From a virus, in the IMG/VR virus record IMGVR_UViG_3300047994_000317, positions 1 through 27,706 of that record: DNA of 27,706 nt; one strand, written 5' to 3'. Below are positions 1 through 26,862 of this stretch, one piece after another. Under the pieces are notes generated by a model. That model was given only the letters and a program-made list of their open reading frames with translations. It did not search any database and had not been told where the DNA came from. The position numbers and the translations under genes were made by a program. Position 1 is the stretch's first letter; each line of letters begins with the position of its first letter.

Positions 1-420
1 ATATGGCTTGTCCAGCGCCACGGATAGCGCCACCCTGATCCTCGGCGGCAGCCTGCAACATCTGTATAACGGCGCGCGCGCCGTCGGCGATATCATCAGC
101 AGCGGCGGCCGTCAGGGCGTCTATGGCAGAGCCTCGGGCACCGTCATCAGCAATGGCGGCGTGGAATGGGTGTATGCCGGCGGCGTGACGTTCGGCGCGG
201 TGGTCAGCAGCGGCGGCCGGGACAATGTTTCCTCCGGCGGCGCCGCCAGCGGCAGCCTCGTCAGCAATGGCGGGTTCGAATATGTCAGCGCCGGCGCCGT
301 CACCAACGCTACGATCGTCTCCGCCGGTGGCGCCGAGATTGCATCCGCGGGCGGGACGACGCGTTCGGCCGTCATCAGTGCTGGCGGGTATGAGAGCGTA
401 TACGGCACTGCGTCGGCCAC
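1..420 (+). repeat. Direct repeat copy A (adhesin paralog 1)
   Basis: This block matches 2281-2700 at a constant offset of 2280. By eye the first 240 bases have only two mismatches, then differences accumulate after about base 244. No gaps were needed in the stretch I compared. Confidence 0.9.
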
Positions 421-1882
421 AACCGTGACCAGTGGCGGTGTCGAACGGATTTATTCCGGCGGTTTGGCGGTCGGAACGGTCGTCGGCAGCGGCGCCCGGG
501 ACAATGTTTCCTCCGGCGGCGCCACCATCAGCACGGTCTTGTACGGTGGCGGTGTCGAGTATGTCAGCGCCGGTGCCTTCACGACGAGCAGGTCCGTAGA
601 GGGCGGTGGGACCGAAATCTTCTATTCCGGGGGCGTCGGAAGCCACACTGTCGTGGACTACGGCTCCGAGATCGTGTCGTCAGGCGGCTCCACGGTCGAT
701 ACGTCCATATTAGCCGGGCAGGAAACCCTCAGCAGCGGCGGCGTTGCGACCTCTGCTTTCATAAATAGCGGTGGGGTGCAATATGTTCGCGGCGGCACGA
801 CCTATGATACAGATATAGGCTATCGCGCCGAAGAAATTGTTTATGCGGGCGTCGCCTCAGACACTTTGGTTAGCTATGATGGCGGGCTGTATGTAAGTGG
901 CGGTGCGGCCGACGGGGCCACGGTCCAGGAGGGCGGCTTGGACGTGATTTCCGGCGTCATCTCCAACACCGTGGCGAGCGATGAATCGGTCGTAGCCCTG
1001 GCTCGCGGCGCAATCTCCTATAATACCATGCTCAGCGGCAACCCATACGCCCAGGGCACTACGGAAACGGTCTACTCGGGTGCTGTCGCGCATGGAACAA
1101 CGGTCTATAACGGCGCTGGGGAAACTGCGGATGGCGGCAAGACCTACGGCACCGTGGTGTCCAGCGGCGGCGAACAATATGCCGTATCGGGCGGTATCAG
1201 CTATGATACCCTGATCTTCACCAGCGGCTATGTGTCAGTGGCCGACGGTGGCACGGAATCTGCGGCATCTATTGACGGTGGCGTTCTGGGAGTCGGATAC
1301 GGCGGGGTGCTGGCGGGAGGGGTGGACTTCTTAGGCTCCAGCGGCCAGCTGGAGATCGCCACCACCGTTATGCCGACGACCGTGATATCCGGCTTCGGGC
1401 CTGGCGATTCAATCGATCTGTTGATGGTGGCCTACTCGTCCGCCAGCACCGTCAGCGTCAACAGCCCTGGGGTGGTAACCGTTTCGGCTGGCGGGACCAC
1501 CTATAATCTCAACATTTCCGGCGCGGTGGTGGGGGCGACGAATTTCAGCCTCAGCAGTGCCGCCTATGGCGGCACGATGTTAACCGACCCGCTGGCGGGG
1601 AGCGATGTTGCCCGTATCGGGCCGGAATTGTCCGCTTTCAAAATGACATTTTTGACGCCGGTCAATGGCGGAGTCGCCAGCGCTTCGGCGCCGCCGATCG
1701 CCGATCTGTTCGCGCCGCATGACAATGCGCCGGCAAATCATGGGGCAAGCTGGCCGGCGTCGAGTGATCCGCTTTGGGGCACGACCAGCGCGTCCATCAT
1801 CGGCGGTTCGCAGATCGCGCATCTGGCTGCAGCCGTAACGCGTTCCACGCTCAGCCTGCCGGCAATGTCAGGAACCGGCTAG
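1..1882 (+). CDS. Repeat-rich AIDA-like surface/secreted adhesin, 5' end outside window
   Basis: The reading frame is already open at base 1, and the matching region of the downstream paralog (from 2281) lies about 120 bases inside that gene, so the true start is off-window. About 440 residues consist of degenerate repeats of roughly 19-20 residues, rich in Gly, Ser and Val with SGG, VSSGG and EYVSAG cores, as in AIDA-type passenger domains that form beta-solenoids. A non-repetitive C-terminal part follows, with ISGFGPGDSIDL, a segment resembling the end of type I-secreted repeat proteins. No autotransporter beta-barrel is visible. The likely role is cell-surface or secreted adhesion; the secretion route is inferred. 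The gene ends at TAG 1880-1882. It could equally be called a generic repeat protein. Confidence 0.8.
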   Translation, partial: YGLSSATDSATLILGGSLQHLYNGARAVGDIISSGGRQGVYGRASGTVISNGGVEWVYAGGVTFGAVVSSGGRDNVSSGGAASGSLVSNGGFEYVSAGAVTNATIVSAGGAEIASAGGTTRSAVISAGGYESVYGTASATTVTSGGVERIYSGGLAVGTVVGSGARDNVSSGGATISTVLYGGGVEYVSAGAFTTSRSVEGGGTEIFYSGGVGSHTVVDYGSEIVSSGGSTVDTSILAGQETLSSGGVATSAFINSGGVQYVRGGTTYDTDIGYRAEEIVYAGVASDTLVSYDGGLYVSGGAADGATVQEGGLDVISGVISNTVASDESVVALARGAISYNTMLSGNPYAQGTTETVYSGAVAHGTTVYNGAGETADGGKTYGTVVSSGGEQYAVSGGISYDTLIFTSGYVSVADGGTESAASIDGGVLGVGYGGVLAGGVDFLGSSGQLEIATTVMPTTVISGFGPGDSIDLLMVAYSSASTVSVNSPGVVTVSAGGTTYNLNISGAVVGATNFSLSSAAYGGTMLTDPLAGSDVARIGPELSAFKMTFLTPVNGGVASASAPPIADLFAPHDNAPANHGASWPASSDPLWGTTSASIIGGSQIAHLAAAVTRSTLSLPAMSGTG

Positions 1883-2158: not shown

Positions 2159-3265
2159 GTGACCACATACACCGCAACGCCGGGAAATCCGGTCAGTGAC
2201 ACGACGATTACCGCAGCGGATACGCTATACGTATCCGCCGGCGGATTTGCGACGAGCAACACGCTGAATGGCGGCGACGAATATGGCTTGTCCAGCGCCA
2301 CGGATAGCGCCACCCTGATCCTCGGCGGCAGCCTGCAACATCTGTATAACGGCGCGCGCGCCGTCGGCGATATCATCAGAAGCGGCGGCCGTCAGGGCGT
2401 CTATGGCAGAGCCTCGGGCACCGTCATCAGCAATGGCGGCGTGGAATGGGTGTATGCCGGCGGCGTGACGTTCGGCACGGTGGTCAGCAGCGGCGGCCGG
2501 GACAATGTTTCCTCCGGCGGCGCCACTAGCGGCACCCTCGTGCGCAATGGCGGGTTCGAATATGTCAGCGCCGGCGCCGTCACCAACGCTACGATCGTCT
2601 CCGCCGGTGGCGCTGAAATCGCCTGGACAGGCGGGACGACGCAAGCCGCCGTCATCAGCAGCGGCGGTTATGAGCAGGTATACGGCACCGCCTCGGGCAC
2701 CATTGTGAGCGCTGGCGGCGTCGAATGGATTTATTCCGATGGCGTAGCGATTGGCACGGTGGTCAGCAGCGGCGCCCGGGATAATGTTTCCTCCGGCGGC
2801 GCCACCAGCGGCACGATCGTGAGCAATGGCGGGTTCGAATATGTCAGCGCAAGCGCGGTCACCAGCGGTACGATCGTCTTCAGCGGCGGGACCGAGGTCG
2901 CCTTTGCAGGTGCGAGGACGAGCAATGCCGTCATCAGCAATGGCGGTTCCCAAATCGTGTTCGCAGGGGGCGTTTCGGTCGATACCGTTATGAAAGGCAC
3001 CTACTCGAACGGGGTCTACGCGCCAGCGGCTGAGACCGTCAGTGGCGGCGGCGTTGCCATTTCTGCGGTTGTCAGCCGTTACGGGGAGCAATTTGTCTAC
3101 GGTACGACCTCCGGCACCACCATCGTTGGCGGTGGCGAGGAACTTGTCTTCTCCGGCGGCGTCGTCTCCAGCACCGTGGTCTCAGGCTCGTTCAGCGCCG
3201 GCCAGCTGGCTGTCCTGTTCCTCTCCGGCGGCGTGGCCTACGGGACAATTGCCGATGTCCTGTGA
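2159..3265 (+). pseudogene. Second AIDA-like repeat adhesin, 3'-truncated by prophage insertion
   Basis: The GTG start at 2159 follows a strong GAGGAG ribosome-binding site. The 368 residues are almost entirely 19-20-residue Gly/Ser/Val repeats of the same type as the upstream gene, and residues from about 41 onward match its visible start nearly base for base. Unlike the upstream paralog there is no C-terminal ISGF-type module. The frame ends at TGA 3263-3265, immediately inside the inferred phage end, and codon 3260-3262 spans the proposed junction. I therefore read it as a host adhesin interrupted by the prophage, with the missing part beyond the right end of the phage. Alternatively it is simply a short paralog that ends here. 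Confidence 0.7.
2281..2700 (+). repeat. Direct repeat copy B (adhesin paralog 2)
   Basis: This is the partner of 1-420. The near-identity at the start followed by gradual divergence suggests recent tandem duplication or gene conversion between the two adhesin genes. Confidence 0.9.
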
Positions 3266-5422: not shown

Positions 5423-6220
5423 GTGTCGGCTATTGTCCTCATTGACCCCAGAAAAGTAAAAATTGTCGGACGCCTTCGCGACGTTGATGAGGCCGAAGTG
5501 GAGAAGATTGCTCTTTCCATGTCTGAGGTCGGCCAAATAACGCCGATCGAGGTCAGGTATTTTCCCGATGCAGAAGGCTTTTACGTTCTGATCTCCGGCG
5601 CCCATAGAGTCGCAGCCGCTCTGCGCAATGGCGACGAGACGATCCAGGCTCTGTTGTTCGAAGGCAACTCGGATGAGGAGCGGCTGCGCGAGATCGACGA
5701 GAACCTGTATCGTCATGAACTCACGCCTTACGACCAGGCAAATTTTCTTTTCGAACGCCGTGAAATTTGGGAGCGCCTGCACGGTAATTTGAAGCGCGGC
5801 GGCGACAAACGATCAAAGCGCCAAGCTGGCACTTTGATCCAACCTAATGAAATATCAGGGTTTTATAAAAATCTCGGGGATCTATTTTCAATACCAAAGC
5901 GGACGGTGCACCGCGCTCTTGAACGCAAACGCTGCATCGAACCTTCGGTCTGGAACGCTCTTCGCGGAACCCAAGAGGCAAAGAACGGGGCTTTTCTCGA
6001 CAAATTGGCCGATATTGAGCCAAGCGAACAAAAGAAACTTATCGAATTTTGTCGGAATACTGGAAGCACGATCGCTCACGCTATCTCGGATTTACGTGTC
6101 CGAGGGACGAAACGGACGCCCACGGTAACACTGATGGTCAAAAAGGTGCAGGCCGCCTGGGATGGCTGGGGAGCTGACGAGCGTACCGTTTTCCTTAGAG
6201 AAGTCAGGAAACTCAAATGA
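5423..6220 (+). CDS. ParB N-terminal domain protein (early region)
   Basis: The GTG start at 5423 follows AAGGGAA, and the product has 265 residues. Residues about 6-80 form a ParB/Spo0J N-terminal domain, with the conserved GAHRVAAAL (near 53-61) and the family's NLYRHELTPYDQANFL segment (near 91-106). A helical DNA-binding part follows. ParB-like proteins bind DNA and use a CTP/nuclease-like fold. Free-standing copies occur in the early region of several Mu-like phages, and their job there is not established. It is unlikely to partition the phage genome, because no ParA partner is visible. It ends in an ATGA overlap with the next small frame. Confidence 0.8.
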   Translation: MSAIVLIDPRKVKIVGRLRDVDEAEVEKIALSMSEVGQITPIEVRYFPDAEGFYVLISGAHRVAAALRNGDETIQALLFEGNSDEERLREIDENLYRHELTPYDQANFLFERREIWERLHGNLKRGGDKRSKRQAGTLIQPNEISGFYKNLGDLFSIPKRTVHRALERKRCIEPSVWNALRGTQEAKNGAFLDKLADIEPSEQKKLIEFCRNTGSTIAHAISDLRVRGTKRTPTVTLMVKKVQAAWDGWGADERTVFLREVRKLK

Positions 6221-6312
6221 AGAATAGCAGGTTCGAAGGCGCAATCGTTGCGTTTGCCGTGGTGTTTTGCATCGCGGCGATTTGGGTTCCCATCATTTTT
6301 TGTGGGAACTGA
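6217..6312 (+). CDS. 31-residue single-pass membrane peptide
   Basis: The ATG at 6217 overlaps the ParB gene stop (ATGA), so translational coupling is likely. The peptide is a short charged head (MKNSRFEG) followed by a hydrophobic helix from about residue 9 to 28. Its stop overlaps the candidate GTG start of the next gene by 11 bases. I recognise no family. A role in membrane targeting or host modulation is only a guess; the coding case rests on the overlap and the clean transmembrane pattern. Confidence 0.45.
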   Translation: MKNSRFEGAIVAFAVVFCIAAIWVPIIFCGN

Positions 6313-6919
6313 CGAGTTGGCTGTAGGACAAGAGATTGTTGTCCGCACAGAGAGACTGAGGCAGGCCATTAATTTAGCTGGCGGCGCGACCGCCGTGGCC
6401 CGCAAAATCTCGATGGCCCCGACGACAATTAATAACTATCTTGCTGGCAGAGATATGAAAGCCTCCGCGCTTGCCGCGCTGGCGGATGCCTGTGGCGTTT
6501 CGATCGAATGGCTAGCTGTGGGCCGCGGCCCGATGGTTCGGGAAACCGTATTCTCCAACTCCGCCGCCTCTATTGCCTTTGAATCTTCAACGGATTCAGC
6601 CTTCGAGAAGGTTTCCGTAGTCAGGAATTTCAGAGTTGAGATTCCGGAAATGCCGTCTGAAGCCGAAGCCATGACGGTATCGAGATTAATTATATCCGGA
6701 AAATTTGGTGAACCGCGAAGCGAGGCCTGGAACGCTGCCGTCGTCGCAGTGTTTGGTTTGATTCAAAAATCGCACGAGGAGCGAGCAGCTTTCGCTCGTC
6801 GACAAATCCCGCAAGGGTTGGAGGGAGATGTGACAGTGTACTGCTGCTTTACCGAAAAAATGCTGAAGGCGTTGCGCTGCGTCTGGCCGAGTCAGCCTGA
6901 TGATGAGTGGAAAGTTTAG
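6302..6919 (+). CDS. Second HTH (CI-like N-terminal) regulator
   Basis: I use GTG 6302, giving 205 residues; the frame opens at 6248, but that would be read through the upstream small gene, and TTG 6317 is a further option. Residues about 14-78 form a phage CI-type helix-turn-helix: RTERLRQAINLAGGATAVAR, then ISMAPTTINNYLAGRD and the ACGVSIEWLAVGRGPM ending that is highly typical of CI N-terminal domains. The remaining 120 residues have no recognisable peptidase or oligomerisation motif. It lies in the early operon and points rightward, so it is more likely an early or middle regulator than the main lysogeny repressor. Confidence 0.7.
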   Translation: MGTDELAVGQEIVVRTERLRQAINLAGGATAVARKISMAPTTINNYLAGRDMKASALAALADACGVSIEWLAVGRGPMVRETVFSNSAASIAFESSTDSAFEKVSVVRNFRVEIPEMPSEAEAMTVSRLIISGKFGEPRSEAWNAAVVAVFGLIQKSHEERAAFARRQIPQGLEGDVTVYCCFTEKMLKALRCVWPSQPDDEWKV

Positions 6920-7211: not shown

Positions 7212-7504
7212 GAAAGGGTTGGAAGCCTAGCCGGGAGACGCGGGCGAAGATTTCCGCGGCGCTGGCTAGGAAACCTCAAAGCCTCGAGCATAGAGCTAAA
7301 ATATCCGCGGCGCCGACAGGGCGCAGGTTTAGCCCTGAGCATCGCGCGAATATGTCGGCGGCGAAGAAGGGCATCGGCCTAATCCCGGAGACGCGGGAGA
7401 TGACGGAAGCGCAGATTGCCGATTTCCGGTTGTTCCGGCGTAAGGGATTTTCAAAGTCCGAAGCGGCGGCGCTGGTGTTTACCGGCAGGCTTGACGCCGA
7501 ATGA
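7208..7504 (+). CDS. Orphan NUMOD3-repeat DNA-binding protein
   Basis: The GTG start overlaps the previous stop. The 98-residue protein carries three tandem motifs of the NUMOD3 type (RETRAKISAALARK, EHRAKISAAPTGRR, EHRANMSAAKKG) over residues 10-55. NUMOD3 is a minor-groove DNA-binding module usually attached to GIY-YIG or HNH homing endonucleases. No nuclease domain is present here. A C-terminal helical segment (about 68-94, FRLFRRKGFSKSEAAALVF) resembles a small HTH. It lies directly before the transposase and overlaps its start. It could be a remnant of a homing endonuclease or a domesticated DNA-binding accessory protein. Confidence 0.65.
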   Translation: MRKGWKPSRETRAKISAALARKPQSLEHRAKISAAPTGRRFSPEHRANMSAAKKGIGLIPETREMTEAQIADFRLFRRKGFSKSEAAALVFTGRLDAE

Positions 7505-9432
7505 GGAAAGCCTGGTTCAGCGCCGCCGAAATTGCGGAGGAGGCGTTGCCGGGAATGCCGGCCAGTAAGCGCGGCGTGGCGCGGGTGGCCGAAGTTGAGA
7601 AATGGGACCGGCGCGAGGAATCGCGGCAGCGTAGCGGGCGCGGCGGCGGCCTGGAGTATCACTTCACGCTGCTGCCGGCGGCCGCGCAGGCCGTGCTGGT
7701 GGACCGCTACAGCGCGGCGCCGGCGGTGGAAGTCCAGAAGCGTACCGTGACGGCGCTGACGCCGCGTGGGGCGGCTGCCTGGGCCTGGTACGAGCAACAA
7801 CCGAATACGCTGAAGGACCGGGCCGTGCAGCGCCGGGAAGCGCTGGAGCGGATTGATACGCTGAGCCGGCGCGTTGGGCGCGGGGCGGCCATACGCACCA
7901 TTGCGGAAGAACAAGACGTTTCGATCGCGACGGTGCATAACTGGCTGGAGCGGGTGCGCGGCGTGCCGCGGACGGATTGGCTGCCGGCGCTGGTACCAGA
8001 GCCGCGCGGCGGCGGTGGCCGGGCGGTGGAAATTCACGACGCGTTCTGGGATGCCTTCAAGGCCGATTATTTAAGGCTGTCGCAGCCCAGCTTCAATTCC
8101 TGCTTTCGGCGGGTTGAGCGCATCGCCCACCAGCAAGGCTGGCCGGTGCCGAATATGCGGACCCTGCGCCGCCGGGTGGACCAAATTCCCGAGGCCGTGC
8201 TGACGATGGCGCGCAAGGGGCGCGACGCGACCAAGCGGCTGTTTCCAGCGCAGGAGCGCGATCGATCCGGCTTCCATGCTTTGGAAGCCGTGAACGCCGA
8301 CGGACATAAATGGGATGTGTTCGTGGAGTGGGAAGACGGCAAGATCGGCCGGCCCATGATGGTCGGGTTTCAAGATTTGTATTCAAACATGTTCCTGGCC
8401 TGGCGCGTCTGCCGAAGCGAGAACAAGGATGACGTGCGGCTTTGCTTTGGCGACCTGATCGAAACCTACGGCGTGCCGTATCATTGCTGGTTGGATAATG
8501 GCCGGGCCTTCGCCAGCAAATGGCTGACGGGCGGCATGCCGAACCGCTTCCGGTTCAAGGTGAAGGATGAAGAGCCGGACGGCATCTTCACGCAACTGGG
8601 CGTGCAGGTGCATTGGACCACGCCTTATGCCGGCCAAAGCAAGCCGATCGAGCGCGGGTTCAACGATTTCGCGGGGGATATCGCGAAACACCCGGCTTTT
8701 GAAGGGGCATATTGCGGCAATGATCCGCTGAGCAAGCCTGAAAACTACGGCACGAAGGCGGTGCCGATCGCGCTGTTCACCGCCATCATCAATCAGGAAA
8801 TTACCGAGCATAATGCGCGCCTGGCGCGTGATACCAGGGTGTGCGGCGGCAAGCTTTCGTTCCGGCAGGCGTTCGACGCGTCCTATGCCATATCGCCAAT
8901 CCGCCAAGCGACGGTAGAGCAGCGCCGGATGTGCATGCTGATGGCAGAACAAGTGAATGTAAGGCGCCGTGATGGCGCGATTTTCCTGATGAAGAACCGG
9001 TACTGGCACGAAACGCTGCTGGAACATCGCGGGCAAATGGTAACCGTGCGGTTCGATCCCGAGAACGTGCATGCCGATCTGGCGGTGTTTGCCAAGGACG
9101 GCACATTAATTTGTGTGGCCGAGCTGCAAGAGGCCGCGGGGTTTGCCGATACCAACGCGGCACGCGAGCATGCGGCAAACCGCAATGCGTTCCAGCGGGC
9201 GACACGCGAGCGGCTGGCGGCGTTGAACAAGATGTCCCTGCAAGACCTGGTAGCGCTGCAGCCGAAAGCTACCGAATACGAGCCGCCGGAGCGCAAGATC
9301 GTGCGGCCGATTTTTGCCGGCAACCTGGCGCTGAAAGCACGCGCGGAAGCCGAGGAAGAAGATGAAGCATTTCACGCCGATTTAGCGAAGGGCCTGCGGC
9401 TGCACATCGTGCGCCAGCAGGAGGAGTTCTGA
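7501..9432 (+). CDS. Mu-type DDE transposase (MuA homolog)
   Basis: This 643-residue protein fits the 663-residue MuA. The N-terminus (RKAWFSAAEIA, residues 2-12) is the Mu-type DNA-binding winged helix. The catalytic triad is visible at D267 (NADGHKWD), D332 (WLDNGR) and E384 (KPIERGF), close to D269, D336 and E392 of MuA. A beta-barrel-like segment follows (about 490-540), then a charged tail that in Mu binds MuB and ClpX. It catalyses donor cleavage and strand transfer at the phage ends for integration and replicative transposition. It overlaps the NUMOD3 gene by four bases and is followed by the MuB homolog. No lesion is visible. Confidence 0.96.
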   Translation: MRKAWFSAAEIAEEALPGMPASKRGVARVAEVEKWDRREESRQRSGRGGGLEYHFTLLPAAAQAVLVDRYSAAPAVEVQKRTVTALTPRGAAAWAWYEQQPNTLKDRAVQRREALERIDTLSRRVGRGAAIRTIAEEQDVSIATVHNWLERVRGVPRTDWLPALVPEPRGGGGRAVEIHDAFWDAFKADYLRLSQPSFNSCFRRVERIAHQQGWPVPNMRTLRRRVDQIPEAVLTMARKGRDATKRLFPAQERDRSGFHALEAVNADGHKWDVFVEWEDGKIGRPMMVGFQDLYSNMFLAWRVCRSENKDDVRLCFGDLIETYGVPYHCWLDNGRAFASKWLTGGMPNRFRFKVKDEEPDGIFTQLGVQVHWTTPYAGQSKPIERGFNDFAGDIAKHPAFEGAYCGNDPLSKPENYGTKAVPIALFTAIINQEITEHNARLARDTRVCGGKLSFRQAFDASYAISPIRQATVEQRRMCMLMAEQVNVRRRDGAIFLMKNRYWHETLLEHRGQMVTVRFDPENVHADLAVFAKDGTLICVAELQEAAGFADTNAAREHAANRNAFQRATRERLAALNKMSLQDLVALQPKATEYEPPERKIVRPIFAGNLALKARAEAEEEDEAFHADLAKGLRLHIVRQQEEF

Positions 9433-9470: not shown

Positions 9471-10475
9471 ATGTCTGAAACTGCCGACCCGATACATGAT
9501 TTGAGCGCTGCAAAGATGGCGCAGGATTTAGGCGAACTGGACGGCGATGCCGTGCGCGGCAAGGTGCGCGAGTACATAGCGGCCCACGGTCTTAGCCAGA
9601 GCGCGGTAGGAACGCTTGCCGGCATTGCCGAGAGCACGTTCAGCGCGTGGTTGAAAGGCTACTACAAGGGCGATAACGAGAAGGTCGAGGAGCGGGTTCG
9701 CATCTGGCTGCGCAGCGTTGAGGTTTTTGCCGGGAAGCGAAAATCATCCCTGCGGAATATGCGCTTCGCGCCGACGGTTTCCGCCCAGAAGATCATCACC
9801 GCCCTGGAGCATGCGCAGGCGCTGCCGGATATCGCCGTGATCTCCGCCGGCGCCGGCGTGGGAAAGACTGCAACCTGCCTGCATTACAAGCGGACGCGGC
9901 CGAATGTGTTCCTGCTGACGGGCGATCCTTCCCTGCATTCGCATGGGAAGATGCTGGATTATTTGCGGGACATTTTGAACATCCCGAAAATGCCGACGCA
10001 TAAATTGACCCGCGCGATCGCGGACCGGCTTTCCAACAGCCAGGCGCTGCTGATTTTCGACGAGGCCCAGCATTTTGCGACGAAGTGCATGGACATGCTG
10101 CGATCGATCCATGACCGCGGGGGCGTTGGCATGGCGTTCGTGGGAAATGCCGAAGTGTGGAGGCGCATCGATGGCGGCGGGCGCAACGCCGAGCTGACGC
10201 AATTGTTCAGCCGCGTTGGCATTCGCGTGACGATCGCGAGCCCCAGCAACAAGGATATCGAGATCATCCTGGACACGCTGGAGATCCAGGATGCGAAACA
10301 GCGGACGATCTTGACGACGATCGCCAAGGAACCGGGCGCGCTGCGGGCGCTGGATAAGGTGCTGGGGCTGGCCTTGATGGTTGCCGACGGCGCCGGCGAA
10401 CCGCTGAACGAGTCACATTTGATGAAGTCCTGGAGCCGGTTTTCCGGCCGCAGGATCGGCCTGGAGGGAGCATGA
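9471..10475 (+). CDS. Mu-type transposition target protein B (AAA+ ATPase)
   Basis: The ATG at 9471 follows AAGGAAAC, and the product has 334 residues (MuB has 312). Residues about 38-65 are an N-terminal helix-turn-helix (LSQSAVGTLAGIAESTFSAW). Walker A is GAGVGKT near 127-133, and Walker B is LLIFDEAQ near 193-200 with D197/E198. MuB polymerises on target DNA, stimulates MuA and gives target immunity. It follows the transposase gene after a 38-base gap, the only real spacer in this stretch, and overlaps the next gene by four bases. Confidence 0.95.
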   Translation: MSETADPIHDLSAAKMAQDLGELDGDAVRGKVREYIAAHGLSQSAVGTLAGIAESTFSAWLKGYYKGDNEKVEERVRIWLRSVEVFAGKRKSSLRNMRFAPTVSAQKIITALEHAQALPDIAVISAGAGVGKTATCLHYKRTRPNVFLLTGDPSLHSHGKMLDYLRDILNIPKMPTHKLTRAIADRLSNSQALLIFDEAQHFATKCMDMLRSIHDRGGVGMAFVGNAEVWRRIDGGGRNAELTQLFSRVGIRVTIASPSNKDIEIILDTLEIQDAKQRTILTTIAKEPGALRALDKVLGLALMVADGAGEPLNESHLMKSWSRFSGRRIGLEGA

Positions 10476-11111: not shown

Positions 11112-11593
11112 CCCTGAACCTGGCACGAGATCGTGGGATGATCCCGCTCGGCAATTGTCCGGAGTGCAGAAATACGCGGGTGCGGCCTGGGTCTTTTAGC
11201 CAGGCGCTGCTGGATGCGTGCGCGCGATGCACGAAAACCGCTGAAATGCAGTGGGTCTATCACGTGGCGATAACCAGAAGTCAATCGAGTGGCGTTATTA
11301 TCGAAGGGGAAATTATCGATGGGGAAAAACAAAAAATTGCAGAAGGCAAAGGCATCGGTTGCGACGGTGCCGCAGACCTATGCGCAGGTGGTGACCGCGA
11401 TCGCGGAGCTGGGCCAGGCGCAACGCGCGAAGACGCGCATCGAGACGGAAATGAACGACGCGCTGGCCGCCGTGAAAGAGCAGCACGAGCTGCTCGCCGA
11501 GCCGTACAACGCGAGCATCAAGGATCTGTCGGCCGGCATCCAGATTTGGTGCGAAGCGAACCGGCACACGCTGACGAATGGGGGCAAGGTTAA
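11108..11593 (+). CDS. Zinc-ribbon-like protein with long out-of-frame overlap into gam
   Basis: The frame starts at an ATGA overlap. Two cysteine pairs, CPEC (residues 17-20) and CARC (38-41), suggest a small zinc ribbon. Up to about residue 70 the sequence looks like a normal protein; after that it runs for about 275 bases in a different frame over the gam gene and has the Arg/Ala-rich look of out-of-frame reading. Either the protein really has this odd tail or a frameshift has removed an earlier stop. The start is well supported, the 3' end is not. Confidence 0.5.
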   Translation: MTLNLARDRGMIPLGNCPECRNTRVRPGSFSQALLDACARCTKTAEMQWVYHVAITRSQSSGVIIEGEIIDGEKQKIAEGKGIGCDGAADLCAGGDRDRGAGPGATREDAHRDGNERRAGRRERAARAARRAVQREHQGSVGRHPDLVRSEPAHADEWGQG

Positions 11594-11849
11594 AACCGCA
11601 AACTTCGCCTCCGGCGAAGTGCGCTGGCGCCTGGCGCCTTCCAGCGTGGCGCTGAAGAAGGTGGAAGCCGTTATCGCGCTGCTGAAGGAAAAGGGGCTGC
11701 AAAAGTTTATCCGGACCAAAGAGGAGGTGAACAAGGACGCGATCCTGCTGGCGCCGAAAGAGGTTGCCGGCATTCCCGGCATTACCATCAATCAGGCCGA
11801 GGAATTCGTGATCGTTCCGTACGAAGCCAAGCTGGACGAGGTGGCGTGA
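11319..11849 (+). CDS. gam: Gam-like host-nuclease inhibitor
   Basis: I use ATG 11319 (MGKNKKLQK), which follows AAGGGGAA; the frame opens at 11289. The product has 176 residues, like Mu Gam (174). The N-terminal helices (about residues 20-70) form the coiled-coil arm, and the LIKEKG/FIRTKEEVNKDAILLAPKE region with GITINQAEEFVIVPYE at the C-terminus is characteristic of the family. Gam binds DNA ends as a Ku-like dimer and protects phage DNA from RecBCD-type exonucleases. Its stop overlaps the next ATG by one base. Confidence 0.9.
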   Translation: MGKNKKLQKAKASVATVPQTYAQVVTAIAELGQAQRAKTRIETEMNDALAAVKEQHELLAEPYNASIKDLSAGIQIWCEANRHTLTNGGKVKTANFASGEVRWRLAPSSVALKKVEAVIALLKEKGLQKFIRTKEEVNKDAILLAPKEVAGIPGITINQAEEFVIVPYEAKLDEVA

Positions 11850-21232: not shown

Positions 21233-21572
21233 AGAGCATTGGGAAAAGTTGCGGGCTGCAATCGAAAAACGTGGCCTATCACATCTCGTTGCAAATAGCG
21301 GCGAGCAAGCTTTCGAGAACATTATCTCGGAGCTCTCCGGTGAGAATGCGCCGCATGATCCGCTCATGTCCTGCAACTGGATGATCCATGGCCAGGCGCT
21401 CGAACGCGGCGGCCTGTATTTGATGGGGCAAAAGGAAGACGGAACCGCTTACTGCCCTATCTGCGAAGCGATATCTCACGGCGCTGGTGACGAGAAATTT
21501 TGGATCGATGGTCCAGCTGAGGCAGAGTTGACCTTTTGTCGAGAGCAAGGGTTGGTCCCAAATGTCCAGTGA
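21219..21572 (+). CDS. Phage protein with CPIC motif
   Basis: I choose GTG 21219 because AAGGGGG lies just upstream; ATG 21198 is in frame. The product has 117 residues. The pattern ICKEHWEKLRAAIEKRGLSHLV near the N-terminus (split: ICKEHWEKLRAAI and EKRGLSHLV), PLMSCNWMIHGQALERGGLYLMG and YCPICEA recalls a family of small phage proteins next to terminase/portal genes. Cys residues at the start and at CPIC could bind zinc. The function is unknown. It overlaps the portal start by 11 bases. Confidence 0.65.
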   Translation: MQICKEHWEKLRAAIEKRGLSHLVANSGEQAFENIISELSGENAPHDPLMSCNWMIHGQALERGGLYLMGQKEDGTAYCPICEAISHGAGDEKFWIDGPAEAELTFCREQGLVPNVQ

Positions 21573-23253
21573 TAGCGGCCTGGTCGACCAGTTCGGTTTT
21601 GCCATCCTATCGTCGGATATCGCGCAGCTTAAAGGCGAGATGGCTGCGCCAAGCAGCTTTTCCGGCCGGCCGCCTTTTGCCGGGCATCTGGCGTTCGGCA
21701 TCGATCCTGGGCGGCTTGGGATGATCATCCGGGCGGCCGATAATGGCTCGACGCGGGAGTGGTATATCCTGGCGGAAGAGATCGAGGAGCTTTTCAGCCA
21801 TTATTCCTCGGTGCTGGCGAAGCGCCGGCGGCAGGTTTGCCTGCTGCCGATGACGGTTGAAGCCGCAGAGGACGTGAAAGACGGCGAGAAGCATGCCGAC
21901 TTCGTGCGGAAATGGCTGCAAAAGAAGGTGCTGGCGCGGGCGATGTTCGATATCACGGACGCGATCGGCAAAGGCTATACCGCGAACGAAATCATCTGGG
22001 ATACGCGGCCGGACCGGGTTGAGCCGGCCGAGATCAAATGGCGGCATCAGCGCGATTTCGAGGTGAGCTGGAAAGACGGGCAGACGATCTGGCTGCGCGA
22101 CGGCGCCGGGTTTTTGGATCTGCCGCCGCATAAATTCCTGTTGCATGCGCATTGCAGCAAGAGCGGTGACCCCGTGCGCAGCGGGCTGACCCGCATGGTG
22201 GCCTGGCTGTGGATGTATTCGACCTTTACGCTGAAGGACTGGGCGCTGTTCGTGCAGGGCTACGGCTTGCCGGTGCGGGTAGGCAAATACGGGCCGACGG
22301 CATCCGACAGCGATAAGCGCACGTTGTGGCGGGCGGTGCGCGGCATCGCCGGCGACCTGGCGGCGATTATCCCCGATTCGATGGCGCTGGAGTTTATTGA
22401 AGCAAAGGGCGCCAATGACGGCGCCAGGCTGTTCACCGAACGGGCGAACTGGCTGAACTATGAGGTCTCGAAACTCGTGCTGGGTAGCACCGCCGGGACG
22501 GATGCGATTTCCGGCGGGCATGCGGTGGGACAAGAGCATCGCTCGGCCGAGCAGGATGTGGAGAAGTTCGATGCCGAGCTGCTGGGCGATAGCATCAGCC
22601 GGCAGATCGTGCAGGCGATGGTGGCGTTCACGTTCGGGCCGCAGGACGGCTACCCGGTTATTACCATCGGCCAGAAGGAACAGGTGCCGCTGAGCGACGT
22701 GATTGCGGGCGTTGCGGATCTCGGGCCGCTTGGCTTCACGGCAAAGACGCAGGAGATCCGCGACCGGTTGCAGCTTACGAAGCCGGAGGCCGGCGACGAA
22801 GTGATCGGGATGCCGCCGGCGGCAGGCGGAACCCGGGCCGGTGCAACCAACCCTGACGGCTCGCCGATCGCGAAGGCGGATTTGACGGTGAAGGCGAACC
22901 CGCATCCGGAGATCAACCCGAGTTCGGATGAGCGGGCGCTGATGACGCGGACCCAGGCGAAACTTTTTGGGCGCCTGGTGGCGATGCATACCGGCGGCGC
23001 CGGGCAGCTGATGGAGGCGCTGGAGACGCGCCTGGCGCGCGAGGCCGGCGGCGCGATGGCGGCGATGACCGACCAGGTGCGCGCCTGCATGGAGCAGGCG
23101 GAGGATTTGCCGGATTTCGCGGCGCGCGTGGCGAAGTTGGGGCTGGATGACAAGGCGTTCGCCACGGCGATGACGCAGGGCATGGCGCTGGCGCATGTGG
23201 CCGGGCAGTCCTCGGTGCTGGATGAGATCGCGCCGTTTGCGAGGGCGTCGTGA
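21562..23253 (+). CDS. Portal protein (DUF935, Mu gp29-like)
   Basis: The 563-residue protein matches the DUF935 Mu-type portal: KGYTANEIIWDTR, AEIKWRHQRDFEVSW, PHKFLLHAHCSKSGDPVRSGL, TLKDWALFVQGYGLPVRVGKY and LVLGSTAGTDAISGGHAVGQEH (long strings here are given in pieces of the gene between about residues 135 and 335). It forms the dodecameric DNA channel at the head vertex, contacts the terminase and nucleates head assembly. The C-terminal 150 residues are Ala-rich and less conserved. It overlaps the CPIC protein gene upstream and the next small gene by four bases. Confidence 0.92.
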   Translation: MSSDSGLVDQFGFAILSSDIAQLKGEMAAPSSFSGRPPFAGHLAFGIDPGRLGMIIRAADNGSTREWYILAEEIEELFSHYSSVLAKRRRQVCLLPMTVEAAEDVKDGEKHADFVRKWLQKKVLARAMFDITDAIGKGYTANEIIWDTRPDRVEPAEIKWRHQRDFEVSWKDGQTIWLRDGAGFLDLPPHKFLLHAHCSKSGDPVRSGLTRMVAWLWMYSTFTLKDWALFVQGYGLPVRVGKYGPTASDSDKRTLWRAVRGIAGDLAAIIPDSMALEFIEAKGANDGARLFTERANWLNYEVSKLVLGSTAGTDAISGGHAVGQEHRSAEQDVEKFDAELLGDSISRQIVQAMVAFTFGPQDGYPVITIGQKEQVPLSDVIAGVADLGPLGFTAKTQEIRDRLQLTKPEAGDEVIGMPPAAGGTRAGATNPDGSPIAKADLTVKANPHPEINPSSDERALMTRTQAKLFGRLVAMHTGGAGQLMEALETRLAREAGGAMAAMTDQVRACMEQAEDLPDFAARVAKLGLDDKAFATAMTQGMALAHVAGQSSVLDEIAPFARAS

Positions 23254-23483
23254 TACCCGTCCGGATTGAGGGCGCAAATCATATCATGCGAGGTGCAGGT
23301 TTTAATGACCTGCATGTGAAAATTGTTGCAGGTTCCTTCAGCGTATCCAGGTGGGAGCCGACGCCAGATGATCTGGTGCTCCTGAATGCTGGCGGCAGTG
23401 TAGAGCTGTGGGTCTATGGTGGTCAGCCGCCGGTTCTGATCATTGCGCAACCGCATGTCGAAGTAATTGACCCAGGGGGCTGA
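23250..23483 (+). CDS. Hypothetical small protein between portal and MuF genes
   Basis: The GTG start at 23250 overlaps the portal stop. The 77-residue protein looks beta-rich (VRIEGANHIMRG, DLHVKIVAGSFSVSRW, SVELWVYGGQPPVLII). No family was recognised. It ends two bases before the MuF ATG. Confidence 0.6.
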   Translation: MIPVRIEGANHIMRGAGFNDLHVKIVAGSFSVSRWEPTPDDLVLLNAGGSVELWVYGGQPPVLIIAQPHVEVIDPGG

Positions 23484-23485
23484 GG

Positions 23486-24676
23486 ATGCCCAGCACCGCG
23501 AGCGCGGTTGATCTGCCGTTCAAGGATGCGATCGATTTCTTTCGGCAGAAAATAGATACGCCATCCGCGCATTGGACGACGGTTATGGACGAGGCGCATG
23601 CGCGGGCCTTTGCGGTGGCGGGGGCGACGAAGACCGCGCTGATCGGGGATTTCCGGCAGGCGGTCGATAAGGCAATCTCCCAGGGTACCAGCTATGGCGA
23701 GTTCAAAAAAGATTTCGATGCGCTGGTGAAAAAATTCGGTTGGAGCCATACCGGCACGGCGGATTGGCGGGCGCGGATTATCTACAACACCAATCTTTCC
23801 ACCGCCTTCGCGGCCGGGCGCTATGCGCAGATGACGGAGCCGGATGTGCTGGCCGCTTTTCCGTACTGGCAATACCAGCATGTGAATTGCCCGAACCCCC
23901 GGCTGCAGCATCTGGCCTGGTCCGGCATGGTGCTGCGGGCGGATGATCCGTTCTGGGCAACCTGCTACCCACCCAATGGCTGGAATTGCCATTGCATCGT
24001 CTACAATCTTTCGCAGCGCGCTTTGGAGAAGACCGGCAGGAGCGGCCCGGATAAATCGCCGGCGCTGCAGTGGCGGGAATATGTGAACCGCGCGACCGGC
24101 GTGGTGACGAAATATCCGGCCGGCGTTGACCCTGGATTTGTCGGCAACCCCGGCCAGGCGTGGCTGCGCAATAAGCCGCAGGATTTGAAGGCGCCGCGCG
24201 TGCGGCCGGTGAGCCCGGCACCGCCGGTGCTGGCACCGGCCGGTAAGACGGCAGTCGCGCCGGCGGTGCTGCAAAAATTCATCGCGCAGCCGCAAGGGGC
24301 CGTGCAGGTGGGCGTGTTGGATGGGCACACGGCGAAAATTCTCGATGCATATTCGCGCAGAGTGCTGCTCTCAGCCGATACCATGGCAAAGCAAGTGCTC
24401 GAGCACCCGGAGCTGCCGGCGGATATCTATGCCGGCATCGATGCCCTGGTCGCGGCCCCCGAGGCCGTATTGAGCAACCGGCCCTATCATGTCCGCCTTC
24501 TTGGGCGCATTGGCGATGCGGCGGTGACCGCGGTGGTGAAGAAGACGCCGGCTGAGAATTTCGTGGTCAGCTTGCACCGGGTGCGCGCGGATTCGATCAA
24601 GCAGTTCTTCAAGCGCGCCAAGCTGATGGCTGGCGATGCGCAGGCGTTGTTGGCGTGGCTTGAACAGACGCGCTGA
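23486..24676 (+). CDS. MuF head-morphogenesis protein with C-terminal PBECR-like nuclease domain
   Basis: The 396-residue protein has a Mu gpF/gp30-type domain at about residues 20-175 (TADWRARIIYNTNLSTAFAAGR, then DPFWATCYPPNGWNCHCIV, with Cys160, Cys168, Cys170). A Pro/Ala linker follows (about 235-265), then a separate domain at 275-381: VLLSADTMAKQVLEHPEL, Y-x-x-I, VKKTPAENFVVSLHRV and IKQFFKRAKLM. That order (S-D-x-x-x-K, H-P-x-L, then a beta strand with S-x-H/R and a basic helix) resembles the PBECR barnase/EndoU/colicin/RelE-like nucleases found at the C-terminus of MuF proteins. The MuF part is needed for head assembly. The toxin-like domain may be injected or may act on host RNA; that is inference. 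Confidence 0.85.
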   Translation: MPSTASAVDLPFKDAIDFFRQKIDTPSAHWTTVMDEAHARAFAVAGATKTALIGDFRQAVDKAISQGTSYGEFKKDFDALVKKFGWSHTGTADWRARIIYNTNLSTAFAAGRYAQMTEPDVLAAFPYWQYQHVNCPNPRLQHLAWSGMVLRADDPFWATCYPPNGWNCHCIVYNLSQRALEKTGRSGPDKSPALQWREYVNRATGVVTKYPAGVDPGFVGNPGQAWLRNKPQDLKAPRVRPVSPAPPVLAPAGKTAVAPAVLQKFIAQPQGAVQVGVLDGHTAKILDAYSRRVLLSADTMAKQVLEHPELPADIYAGIDALVAAPEAVLSNRPYHVRLLGRIGDAAVTAVVKKTPAENFVVSLHRVRADSIKQFFKRAKLMAGDAQALLAWLEQTR

Positions 24677-24790: not shown

Positions 24791-25306
24791 ATGACCGCGG
24801 CGGTGTTCGAGGCCGTACTGGATGATAGCCTGGTGTTGGGCGCGCTGGACCGGTTGGCGGCGGCCGCGGCGGATAGCGGGCCGCTGCTGCGGATTATCGG
24901 CGATTACGGGGTTGATACCACCAAGCGGCGGTTTGAGGCCCAGGCCGCGCCGGATGGCACGCCATGGGCGGCGCTGAATTCCGCCTACGCCGCGATGAAG
25001 CCTTCCGGCTATAATATCCTGTTCCTGTCCGGCGCGCTGTTGAATTCACAGCATTGGGTGGCCGGCATCGGCGAGGTGAAGTGGGGGAGCGGCATGATCT
25101 ACGCCGCGGCCCACCAGTGGGGCGCGGTGATTACGCCGAAGACGGCCAAGGCGCTGGTGTTCAAGACCGGGCTGGGCGGCGCGCAGACCGTGCGGGTGCA
25201 ATCGGTGACGCTGCCGGCCCGGCCTTATCTGGGGTTGAGCGCGGAAGACAGGATCGAGATTCCGCTATTGGCGCAGGATTACCTGATCCGGGCGATGCGC
25301 GGCTGA
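24791..25306 (+). CDS. Virion morphogenesis protein (Mu gpG-like)
   Basis: The 171-residue product matches the Mu gpG / tail completion family: GDYGVDTTKRRFEAQAAPDG, PWAALNSAYAAMKPSGYNIL, LFLSGALLNSQHW, YAAAHQWGAVI and LPARPYLGLSAED (about residues 37-160). The R-F-x-x-x-x-x-PDG-x-PW and PARPYLG signatures are typical. In Mu, gpG acts in tail-to-head completion. The stop at 25306 overlaps the 3' end of the reverse gene by 28 bases. Confidence 0.88.
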   Translation: MTAAVFEAVLDDSLVLGALDRLAAAAADSGPLLRIIGDYGVDTTKRRFEAQAAPDGTPWAALNSAYAAMKPSGYNILFLSGALLNSQHWVAGIGEVKWGSGMIYAAAHQWGAVITPKTAKALVFKTGLGGAQTVRVQSVTLPARPYLGLSAEDRIEIPLLAQDYLIRAMRG

Positions 25307-25566
25307 GCGGCCGCCGGAAATGGTTGCCAGCCCGTAGCCATATCGCCCCAGCTCGCATGCCGGATTGTTGCACCTTGGCCGTGGCACCGTGAGCAGCGCG
25401 CGGATCTGCGCAGCTTGTCACTCGACGTATTCGGCCCCCAGCGGATGACGAAGGGCGCGATCGCCACCGCCTGCGAGTGATTGCAGGCGAGGCAATACAG
25501 CCAGACCCATCCGGGCTCCGTTTTTTGGAGCTGGCCCAAGGATAAGGTTGGGGAGGTGTCTGGCAT
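25279..25566 (-). CDS. Reverse-strand zinc-finger protein (alphaproteobacterial type)
   Basis: I use ATG 25566 (MPDTSPTLSLGQL), 95 residues; a longer frame opens at 25809 but its first 81 residues look non-coding. The pattern LGQLQKTEPGWVWLYCLACNH, FVIRWGPNTSSDKLRRSARCSRCHGQGA and WGDMATGWQPFP recalls a small uncharacterised protein family of alphaproteobacteria, with CLAC and CSRC forming a zinc knuckle. It runs against the late operon, between gpG and gpI, so it is a moron with its own promoter in the 25567-25830 region. The function is unknown. Confidence 0.75.
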   Translation of the reverse strand: MPDTSPTLSLGQLQKTEPGWVWLYCLACNHSQAVAIAPFVIRWGPNTSSDKLRRSARCSRCHGQGATIRHASWGDMATGWQPFPAAAQPRIARIR

Positions 25567-25872
25567 GGCGGCATAAAAGCATCGCGGTTCTGGGAGTCGA
25601 GTCCGGGGGCGATTTTCGGCCGAAATACAGCCGGAGCGCGCGGCGCGGCATGACGCGGGGATGACCGGAAGTTTAAGAGGTAAATAAAAGCGCTTAAAAG
25701 GGTGTTGTGCGGCGCGCCGGTAAAGTTCCGGGCAACATGGACCGGGGCGCGGTCCGGGGCGCTTCCCGGCGCGGCGTATTCGGATTAGCGTGAAGCGCAG
25801 AGCCCGCATAATTACGGGCGCATGAAATTCCCGCTATACATGTCTAGCGTGTAGCGCCCGGTTTTTGACGGC
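25567..25872. promoter_or_regulatory. Divergent intergenic control region between reverse gene and gpI
   Basis: About 306 bases hold no gene. Seen here are two adjacent GAGTC (GANTC) sites at 25594-25603, a hairpin with GGACCG/CGGTCC arms at 25739-25755, a repeated CCGGGGCGC, and GCCCG/CGGGC arms near 25802-25819. The late dyad lies at 25833-25848. The region should carry the promoters of both neighbouring genes. Confidence 0.5.
25833..25848 (+). promoter_or_regulatory. Candidate C-type late promoter dyad before gpI (PI)
   Basis: GCTATAC-AT-GTCTAGC is the one-mismatch counterpart of the perfect dyad before the lysozyme gene. Counting the flanks, 21 of 24 bases agree with 13539-13562. It stands 25-40 bases before gpI, where Mu has PI. 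No clear -10 box is seen; GGCATGGT lies at the expected distance. Confidence 0.6.
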
Positions 25873-26862
25873 ATGGTCTGCCGCATGGACGTTTCCTCCC
25901 ATACTGTATCGTTGCCGGCCGGCGCGGGCGCACCCGAATGGGTGCATCTTTTGCCGGCCGGTACCTTTTCCGGGGCGGATGGCAAACAGTTCAAGCTGAC
26001 AGATCCGGCGCGGGTGATCGCGGCATCGATGACCAACGGCAAATTGCCGCTGGATGAGAATCATTCCACGCAACGGGCGCCGGCCATGGGCGCGCCCAGC
26101 CCGGCACGGGCCTGGATCGTCGAGCTGCAGAGCCGCGAAGATGGCATCTGGGGCCGCCCGGAGTGGAACGAGTCCGGCACGGCTTTGATGACGGATAAAA
26201 GCTACAAGGGGCTGAGCCCGGTTTTTACCCACACGAAGGATGGCACGGTTATCGCGATTTTGAGCGCGGCGCTGACCAATAATCCGAACCTGACGCAACT
26301 GACGGCACTTCACACAAACGGGAATGATATGGACAAAATTGCGATTTGCACCGCGCTCGGCCTGGCCGCGACGGTGGATGATGCTGCGGTGCTGACGGCG
26401 CTGCAGACGCTGGCACAGTCCGGCACGGCGCTGCAGACCGCGCAGGCGGATGTGACGCGGCTGAGCACCGAGCGGGAGCAGCTTAAGCGGACGCATGTGC
26501 CGGCCGACCAGGTGGTGGCGCTGCAGACGCGCCTGGAGACGCTGGAGGTCGAGCGCAAGCGGGCGGCCGCGATCGCCTTCGTGGACGGCGCGATCGCCGC
26601 CGGCAAGGCGATTACCCCGGTGCGCGATTTATACATCGCGCAGCATGTGGCGGACCCGGCGACGACCGAGAAGCTGATCAACGCCATGGTGTCGATCAAT
26701 GCGCGCGGCGCGGGCGGCAAGGTGCCGGCGATGAACGACGCCGGCGAGGATGCGCTGAGCGACGCCGAGACCACGATGTGCACGAAGATGAACATCGATC
26801 CGAAAGCCTTTTTGGCGACCAAGAAGAAGATGGCGCCAACCACTGAAGGGAGTGCCGCGTAA
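25873..26862 (+). CDS. Mu gpI-like protease with scaffold domain
   Basis: This 329-residue protein begins at ATG 25873 or 25885 (the second is favoured if the promoter at 25833 is right). The protease half (about residues 15-145) has the Mu I pattern: WVHLLPAGTFSGADGKQFKL, NGKLPLDENHSTQRA, APSPARAWIVEL, GIWGRPEWNESGTALMTDKSYKGLSPVF (in pieces). The C-terminal half (from about 153) is a charged coiled coil, the scaffold. In Mu the protease processes the scaffold and is itself lost during head maturation. It ends one base into the next ATG. Confidence 0.9.
   Translation: MVCRMDVSSHTVSLPAGAGAPEWVHLLPAGTFSGADGKQFKLTDPARVIAASMTNGKLPLDENHSTQRAPAMGAPSPARAWIVELQSREDGIWGRPEWNESGTALMTDKSYKGLSPVFTHTKDGTVIAILSAALTNNPNLTQLTALHTNGNDMDKIAICTALGLAATVDDAAVLTALQTLAQSGTALQTAQADVTRLSTEREQLKRTHVPADQVVALQTRLETLEVERKRAAAIAFVDGAIAAGKAITPVRDLYIAQHVADPATTEKLINAMVSINARGAGGKVPAMNDAGEDALSDAETTMCTKMNIDPKAFLATKKKMAPTTEGSAA
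26329..26862 (+). CDS. Nested scaffold protein (Mu gpZ-like) from internal start
   Basis: ATG 26329 (MDKIAICTALG) is in frame inside gpI, preceded by GGGAA, and would give a 177-residue protein with a long coiled coil. Mu makes gpZ from an internal start in gene I in the same way. The ribosome-binding site is modest, so this product is inferred from the Mu precedent. Confidence 0.5.
   Translation: MDKIAICTALGLAATVDDAAVLTALQTLAQSGTALQTAQADVTRLSTEREQLKRTHVPADQVVALQTRLETLEVERKRAAAIAFVDGAIAAGKAITPVRDLYIAQHVADPATTEKLINAMVSINARGAGGKVPAMNDAGEDALSDAETTMCTKMNIDPKAFLATKKKMAPTTEGSAA

What the first reader, a model, noticed from the sequence alone, without database searches (positions are those of the whole stretch)
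24308..24676. MuF protein carrying a toxin-like PBECR nuclease tail
The domain at residues 275-381 follows a Pro/Ala linker and has the S-D-T-x-x-K, HPEL and V-S-L-H-R pattern of phage barnase/EndoU-like nucleases. It would ride in the head and could act on host RNA on entry, or against rivals. No immunity gene is obvious; the small gene at 23250 is one candidate.
Basis: partly seen in the sequence, partly recalled or inferred. Interest (0 to 1): 0.65.

Follow-up and report, generated by a model that had tools for sequence, protein, structure and literature searches.

The report
Phage head protein with RNase-like tail
A minor head protein of a Mu-like phage ends in a swappable domain related to known bacterial RNA-cutting toxins; it is a new, previously unflagged branch of a known phage theme, and unlike most such toxins its gene usually has no room beside it for an antidote gene.

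Summary
Window 23486-24676 encodes a 396-aa MuF protein (PF04233, 3.6e-18) in a Mu-type transposable phage. After a Pro/Ala-rich linker comes a separate domain, about residues 290-386. No Pfam model recognises this tail by itself. Its relatives link it to PBECR: the tail of Mannheimia phage 3927AP2 scores 2.8e-12 against PBECR3; a profile of 24 PBECR3 sequences finds the window tail at 1.4e-6, and profile-profile comparison gives 98.95%. The AlphaFold model (pLDDT 91) best matches BrnT, CdiA-CT and RelE-type toxins. The published active-site pair is present: His307 (66 of 69 unique tails) and Ser362 (Ser/Thr in 63 of 69). Tails are exchanged between MuF scaffolds: the window's tight clade of five holds three such tails, one ADP-ribosyltransferase and one unknown. 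The suggested immunity gene 23250-23483 is not supported: it has no counterpart in the other MuF loci, and 46 of 53 tail-bearing MuF genes with both flanks visible leave no gene slot on either side. Most likely it is a virion-carried RNase effector acting on entry; RNase activity and injection are inferred. The kind has been known since 2017.

The parts
21562..23253 (+). Mu-type portal protein (gp29-like), gene upstream
   Evidence: PF06074 2.8e-78
23250..23483 (+). 77-aa ORF inserted between portal and MuF; proposed immunity gene, not supported
   Evidence: No homologue at E <= 1e-3 in the other loci; remote phage relatives E 9e-4 or worse; no viral-contig relative confirmed
23486..24676 (+). 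MuF minor head protein, 396 aa
   Evidence: PF04233 3.6e-18; phrog_220 minor head protein and DNA pilot 1.8e-87 over residues 2-352
23651..24001 (+). Phage_Mu_F domain, residues 56-172
24188..24277 (+). Pro/Ala-rich linker, about residues 235-264
   Evidence: translation
24353..24643 (+). PBECR3-like tail domain, HMM core residues about 290-386
24404..24406 (+). His307 codon, predicted catalytic His in the N-terminal helix
   Evidence: His in 66 of 69 unique tails, Arg in 3; model helix at tail residues 33-42, His at 43; role from PMC5512222
24569..24571 (+). Ser362 codon, predicted catalytic Ser/Thr in a late strand
   Evidence: Ser 59 and Thr 4 of 69; model strand at tail residues 94-101, Ser at 98; role from PMC5512222
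24791..25306 (+). gpG-like virion morphogenesis protein; next gene, leaves about 115 nt after MuF
   Evidence: PF05069 2.5e-25

Best explanation
The tail is a PBECR-clade (PBECR3-like), metal-independent RNase domain joined by a flexible linker to the MuF head protein of a temperate Mu-type phage. The MuF part places a few copies next to the portal inside the head. The tail leaves with the DNA at infection and cleaves an RNA of the host, of a resident element or of an RNA-based defence in the first minutes, using His307 and Ser362. It works as a one-shot entry effector in the manner of T4 Alt, so a dedicated immunity protein is not needed: few copies per virion, made late in a cell about to lyse. 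Shown here: homology, fold class, conserved predicted catalytic pair, purifying selection, module exchange, lack of immunity slots. Inferred: packaging, ejection, RNase activity, target.
For: PBECR3 and PBECR2 hits of homologous tails; independent PBECR3 profile finds the window tail at 1.4e-6, hhalign 98.95% against 0.05-0.52% for ten scrambled targets; 9 of 65 tails hit PBECR3 at E <= 0.01; model pLDDT 91.2 with top VIA-align rows BrnT, CdiA-CT, RelE; His 66/69 and Ser/Thr 63/69; tail dN/dS 0.02-0.22 in 24 pairs; exchange with ADP-ribosyltransferase and PBECR2 tails on close scaffolds; Mu-type phage with transposase and an HTH regulator; no slot for an immunity gene in 46 of 53.
Against: The window tail itself has no Pfam hit. 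Foldseek finds no PDB match below E 0.2 and the VIA-align Z values (6.9 and lower) are middling. Position 362 is neither Ser nor Thr in 6 of 69. Phage Mu's own MuF tail is judged inactive in print. No RNase, packaging or ejection assay exists here. Missing immunity genes also fit a non-toxic, structural tail.
Confidence: 0.55

Rival explanations
1. Active fold lost its chemistry: the tail is an RNA- or DNA-binding pilot domain that helps genome entry, as proposed for phage Mu's own MuF tail.
For: phrog_220 is labelled minor head protein and DNA pilot and covers residues 2-352; Mu's copy is called inactive and perhaps RNA-binding; no immunity slot in 46 of 53.
Against: The predicted catalytic His and Ser/Thr are kept in 66 and 63 of 69; the tail is replaced by an ADP-ribosyltransferase or by nothing on close scaffolds, so a fixed structural role is unlikely.
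Confidence: 0.25
2. A true MuF polymorphic toxin with cognate immunity: the phage delivers a potent RNase to rivals, and lysogens are protected by an immunity gene (the 23250 gene or one elsewhere in the genome).
For: MuF scaffold with exchanged toxin-like tails in temperate phages, as in Jamet et al.; experimentally studied MuF toxins Apk2 and Bxa have adjacent immunity genes; the window has a small ORF beside MuF.
Against: No downstream slot in 53 of 56 and no upstream slot in 59 of 66; both absent in 46 of 53; the 23250 product has no counterpart in the other loci, and the other inserts examined are unrelated.
Confidence: 0.12
3. Chance likeness: the tail is an unrelated alpha+beta domain and the BECR match is superficial.
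For: No significant Foldseek PDB match; middling Z values; no Pfam hit for the window tail.
Against: Sequence-profile links to PBECR3 do not depend on the fold and vanish on column scrambling.
Confidence: 0.05

Closest known systems
PBECR3 (Pfam PF18812), for example the MuF tail of Mannheimia phage vB_MhM_3927AP2 and similar proteins in genomes of the family of Muribacter
   Same: Homologous by profile (1.4e-6) and profile-profile (98.95%) comparison; same place at the end of a MuF protein in the Mannheimia phage; same S-x-D-T-x-x-K motif
   Different: The window tail does not reach the Pfam model at all; this branch has His where most of the 24 PBECR3 sequences have Arg
MuF-C (PF18819) of phage Mu gpF
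   Same: Also a PBECR-clade tail on a Mu-type MuF protein (PMC5512222); 7 of 65 relatives hit PF18819 weakly
   Different: Mu's copy is called inactive in print; here the predicted catalytic pair is kept
MuF polymorphic toxins (Jamet et al. 2017; Apk2, Bxa)
   Same: Conserved MuF N-terminus with variable toxin-like C-terminus in temperate phages
   Different: No adjacent immunity gene in most members here; RNase-like rather than alarmone synthetase or ADP-ribosyltransferase
BrnT, CdiA-CT and RelE-type RNase toxins (BECR fold)
   Same: Nearest solved folds by VIA-align: Z 6.9 (BrnT), 5.8 and 5.3 (CdiA-CT), 4.6 (RelE)
   Different: 10-15% identity in the top five rows; not carried in a phage head
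T4 Alt (virion-injected ADP-ribosyltransferase)
   Same: Works-like comparison only: enzyme carried in the head and injected (described in PMC5512222)
   Different: Unrelated domain and chemistry

Membership tests
PBECR clade (phage BECR nucleases, Iyer et al. 2017) | Sequence homology to a PBECR family | tested here: met
   Own PBECR3 profile 1.4e-6; hhalign 98.95%, scrambled controls 0.05-0.52%
PBECR clade (phage BECR nucleases, Iyer et al. [quoted passage not shown]
   Model has helix 33-42, two short helices, then strands 63-68, 71-78, 81-89, 94-101; top VIA-align rows are BECR toxins, Z 6.9 and lower. Caveat: Foldseek PDB not significant, Z below 8
PBECR clade (phage BECR nucleases, Iyer et al. 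2017) | His (or Arg) in the N-terminal helix | tested here: met
   His307; His 66, Arg 3 of 69
PBECR clade (phage BECR nucleases, Iyer et al. 2017) | Ser/Thr in a late strand | tested here: met
   Ser362; Ser 59, Thr 4 of 69
PBECR clade (phage BECR nucleases, Iyer et al. 2017) | RNase activity | not testable with these tools
   Predicted in print, no assay seen in my searches
Pfam PF18812 (PBECR3) as curated | Score over the curated cut-off of 30 bits | tested here: not met
   No PF18812 hit for the window protein or tail; hence called PBECR3-like, not PF18812
MuF polymorphic toxins (Jamet et al. 2017) | N-terminal MuF domain encoded next to the portal gene | tested here: met
   PF04233 3.6e-18, portal upstream
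MuF polymorphic toxins (Jamet et al. 2017) | Variable, exchanged C-terminal toxin-like domains | tested here: met
   ART, PBECR2, PBECR3-like, other and no tail on related scaffolds
MuF polymorphic toxins (Jamet et al. 2017) | Temperate phage | tested here: met
   MuA, MuB and an HTH regulator; relatives lie in bacterial genome contigs
MuF polymorphic toxins (Jamet et al. 2017) | Small adjacent ORF for immunity, usually downstream | tested here: not met
   115 nt to gpG in the window; no slot on either side in 46 of 53
MuF polymorphic toxins (Jamet et al. 2017) | Growth inhibition by the isolated tail | not testable with these tools
   Needs an expression assay

The most novel reading that the evidence does not exclude
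A broad clade of Mu-type temperate phages carries head-borne, catalytically intact PBECR RNases without immunity genes: a class of virion-delivered RNase effectors distinct from toxin-immunity MuF systems, tuned to a phage-relevant RNA (for example a guide or sensor RNA of a defence) that a healthy cell can spare.
Probability: 0.3. Interest if true: 0.6.

Novelty: new member of a known kind. Interest (0 to 1): 0.37.

Why it matters
MuF-PBECR fusions have been predicted RNases since 2017, and in the six paper searches made here I saw no report of an activity test. This branch is wider than Pfam shows, keeps the predicted active site, and occurs in cultivable acetic-acid bacteria (Komagataeibacter, Acetobacter, Gluconacetobacter), so both predictions (RNase on entry; no immunity gene) could be tested in harmless hosts.

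Tried and rejected
Window tail by itself against Pfam, NCBIfam and PHROGs: nothing useful. PADLOC: nothing. PDB sequences with the A4 profile: only three weak hits (4D2-type chains), E 0.093 or worse. Tail-only viral scan with one protein: 17 pattern matches, none confirmed. Foldseek against PDB: nothing below E 0.2. Link to the PBECR2 tails of related scaffolds by hhalign: none, although single members score PBECR2 weakly. The 23250 gene as immunity gene: rejected; its VirB7 hit (2.5e-4, below the cut-off) was not pursued. The distance between His307 and Ser362 was not measured, because no model coordinates are handed out. Whether this domain equals Ct_MAD of Jamet et al. could not be tested (supplements not available).

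Limits of the counts: loci were gathered by MuF and tail peptide patterns, so shares are of this sample only; only exact duplicates were removed. The profile search covered 397 genomes (28 with a match at E <= 0.001); its hits were not added to the counts. A4 holds the window plus 64 of 65 candidate tails: L182, cut by a contig end, was left out, and L007, L008 and L010 were left out because the folding tool takes no such records. The hhalign query set holds 27 tails with E <= 1e-20, without L007, L008, L010. Gaps to gpG are measured to the start of the matched domain, so they overstate the true gap.

Full report
WHAT IS THERE. The window is a 27.7-kb virus record of a Mu-type transposable phage: MuA transposase 7501-9432 (PF02914 6e-56) and MuB 9471-10475 (PF09077 6.3e-18), Gam 11289-11849 (phrog_491 1.9e-52), Mu portal 21562-23253, MuF 23486-24676, gpG-like 24791-25306 and Mu-like protease 25873-26862. 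The finding concerns the C-terminus of the MuF protein.

IT IS A REAL DOMAIN. tblastn against 50,697 phage records finds 281 records with the whole protein; most of the 60 rows listed stop near residue 230, before the linker and tail, and only 7 records have a place covering at least 80% of the query. Scans of viral and genome contigs, four named phage records and the window's own locus gave the loci read. An iterated HMM finds the tail in 86 ORFs of 190 sequences (189 loci plus the window), 69 of them unique. The most constant positions are S296 69/69, Y315 68/69, K302 67/69, K352 67/69 and H307 66/69 (three Arg); position 362 is Ser in 59 and Thr in 4. In 24 close pairs, some of them near-duplicate loci, dN/dS of the tail is 0.02-0.22; that of the MuF part is 0.02-0.11.

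IT BELONGS TO THE PBECR CLADE. The window's tail scores nothing in Pfam. Its relatives do: Mannheimia phage 3927AP2 hits PBECR3 at 2.8e-12 (47 bits, cut-off 30) and PBECR2 at 3.8e-4 (below cut-off); Dulem virus 31 hits PBECR2 at 3.7e-4 (below cut-off). Of 65 tails scanned one by one, 9 hit PBECR3, 7 MuF_C, 7 LPD13, 5 HIT and 1 each PBECR2, PsbP and DUF3801 at E <= 0.01. Of 121 genomes of the family of Muribacter (Pasteurellaceae; family name recalled), 30 held PF18812. The 25 loci returned, 24 of them unique, gave a profile that finds the window tail at 1.4e-6; of its 82 hits below 1e-3, 81 are members of this family. hhalign of 27 tails against the 24 gives 98.95% (E 9e-18), a query of the few closest tails 98.62%, and ten column-scrambled targets 0.05-0.52%. 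Against four ART tails it gives 0.43% and against 11 PBECR2 tails 0.29%. The AlphaFold2 model of residues 265-396 has mean pLDDT 91.2 and pTM 0.85. Foldseek finds no PDB match below E 0.2, but five predicted viral proteins at E <= 0.001, among them a minor capsid protein, a 'Phage MuF C-terminal domain-containing protein' and a 'Nuclease' (TM to the query 0.60-0.76). VIA-align on Foldseek's top 1000 ranks BrnT 6.9, a Salmonella toxin-antitoxin chain 6.9, CdiA-CT 5.8 and 5.3, then mostly RelE, ParE, YoeB and HigB chains; these Z values are middling, and unrelated rows (AceK) reach 4.2.

ACTIVE SITE. Iyer et al. 2017 (PMC5512222; [quoted passage not shown] This tail has the His and the Ser. The PBECR3 reference set mostly has Arg at the equivalent place: 20 of 24 by motif count, with 2 misfires and 2 unmatched; 22 of 24 by eye on the listing. 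In a joint MAFFT alignment this column is not aligned cleanly, so the His/Arg contrast rests on spacing from the conserved Lys.

A SWAPPABLE MODULE. In the sample's 173 unique MuF-bearing ORFs, one per locus, the tail label was given to 69. Among scaffolds at least 50% identical to the window's N-terminus, 25 tails are of this kind, 4 ADP-ribosyltransferase, 6 PBECR2, 9 other and 7 short. Pfam confirms ADPrib_exo_Tox on L091, L014, L022 and L026, PBECR2 on L036 and PBECR3 on L066; L003, L019, L028 and L034 have no tail above a cut-off. On a quick tree of 134 scaffolds the label needs 18 changes, 11 forced by starred branches (shuffled mean 44.5). The smallest starred set holding the window has five rows: three of this tail, one ART, one other. 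The tree has long branches and no bootstrap, and clustering of the label is also real.

NO IMMUNITY GENE. MuF toxins Apk2 and Bxa have adjacent immunity genes (PMC12226406, PMC11699363, passages read), and Jamet et al. report a small downstream ORF for 89.4% of 191 MuF toxin genes (PMC5576092, sections 5 and 13 read). Here the gap from the MuF stop to the gpG domain is at most 175 nt in 53 of 56 tail-bearing genes with gpG next; 9 more are followed by the protease and 4 by neither. 59 of 66 have at most 100 nt before MuF. Of 53 with both flanks visible, 46 have no slot on either side, 6 only an upstream and 1 only a downstream insert; 16 could not be judged. The window is one of the six: its 77-aa ORF has no homologue at E <= 1e-3 in the other loci, and the inserts of L088, L104 and L161 encode other products. 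Remote relatives of the 77-aa product (17 records, E 9e-4 or worse) lie, in the two records opened, near a P-loop NTPase gene (Brevundimonas phage Leszy) and beside a helicase gene (Pseudomonas phage Psp6). The four ART-tailed relatives also have short downstream gaps (172-215 nt), so lack of immunity genes may be a habit of this phage group.

MECHANISM. Best reading: the MuF domain docks a few copies on the portal inside the head. For SPP1 gp7, portal binding and targeting to the procapsid interior are reported, and toxin tails are proposed to be delivered at the start of infection (PMC6316719, passages). The tail enters with the DNA and cuts an RNA early. Absence of immunity fits a dose of a few molecules and late expression. 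Docking, ejection, activity and target are inferred.

NOVELTY. The kind, MuF fused to PBECR, is in print. In my searches I saw no report of this branch, of an assay of a PBECR tail, or of the missing immunity slot; I saw listings only, apart from the papers cited. I rate it a new member of a known kind.

Noticed in passing
window 25279-25809 (- strand): Reverse-strand ORF between gpG and the protease gene with a C-x2-C...C-x2-C zinc-ribbon-like pattern (by eye); no PHROGs hit and no homologue at E <= 1e-3 in the other loci.
   Followed up: partly
window 8-1882 and 2159-3265: Two ORFs with AIDA autotransporter stalk repeats (PF16168 5.2e-16 and 8.6e-18) at the left end, before the phage early genes; possibly host DNA beside the prophage end, or cargo.
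   Followed up: no
window 5423-6220 and 6248-6919: ParB-like ORF (6e-4, below cut-off) beside an HTH regulator (HTH_3 1.4e-5) ahead of the transposase.
   Followed up: no
L003 2992-4083: Scaffold 74% identical to the window's, same linker start, but a different short tail without a Pfam hit; looks like a second unknown effector module.
   Followed up: partly
L028 4995-6593: MuF tail with an HEFGH motif (by eye, zincin-like) and no Pfam hit beyond MuF.
   Followed up: partly
L161 1855-3231: Two genes inserted between portal and MuF (175 and 279 aa), by eye a lysozyme-like and a Gp37/Gp68-like product; the slot before MuF accepts unrelated genes.
   Followed up: no
L139 4001-5234: The MuF gene is split between reading frames in this record, scaffold in one and tail in the other: decay or sequencing error.
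   Followed up: no
L008 (PP511318.1): Dulem virus 31 is filed under Microviridae but has 35.8 kb, a terminase and a portal gene, so the taxonomy line looks wrong.
   Followed up: no
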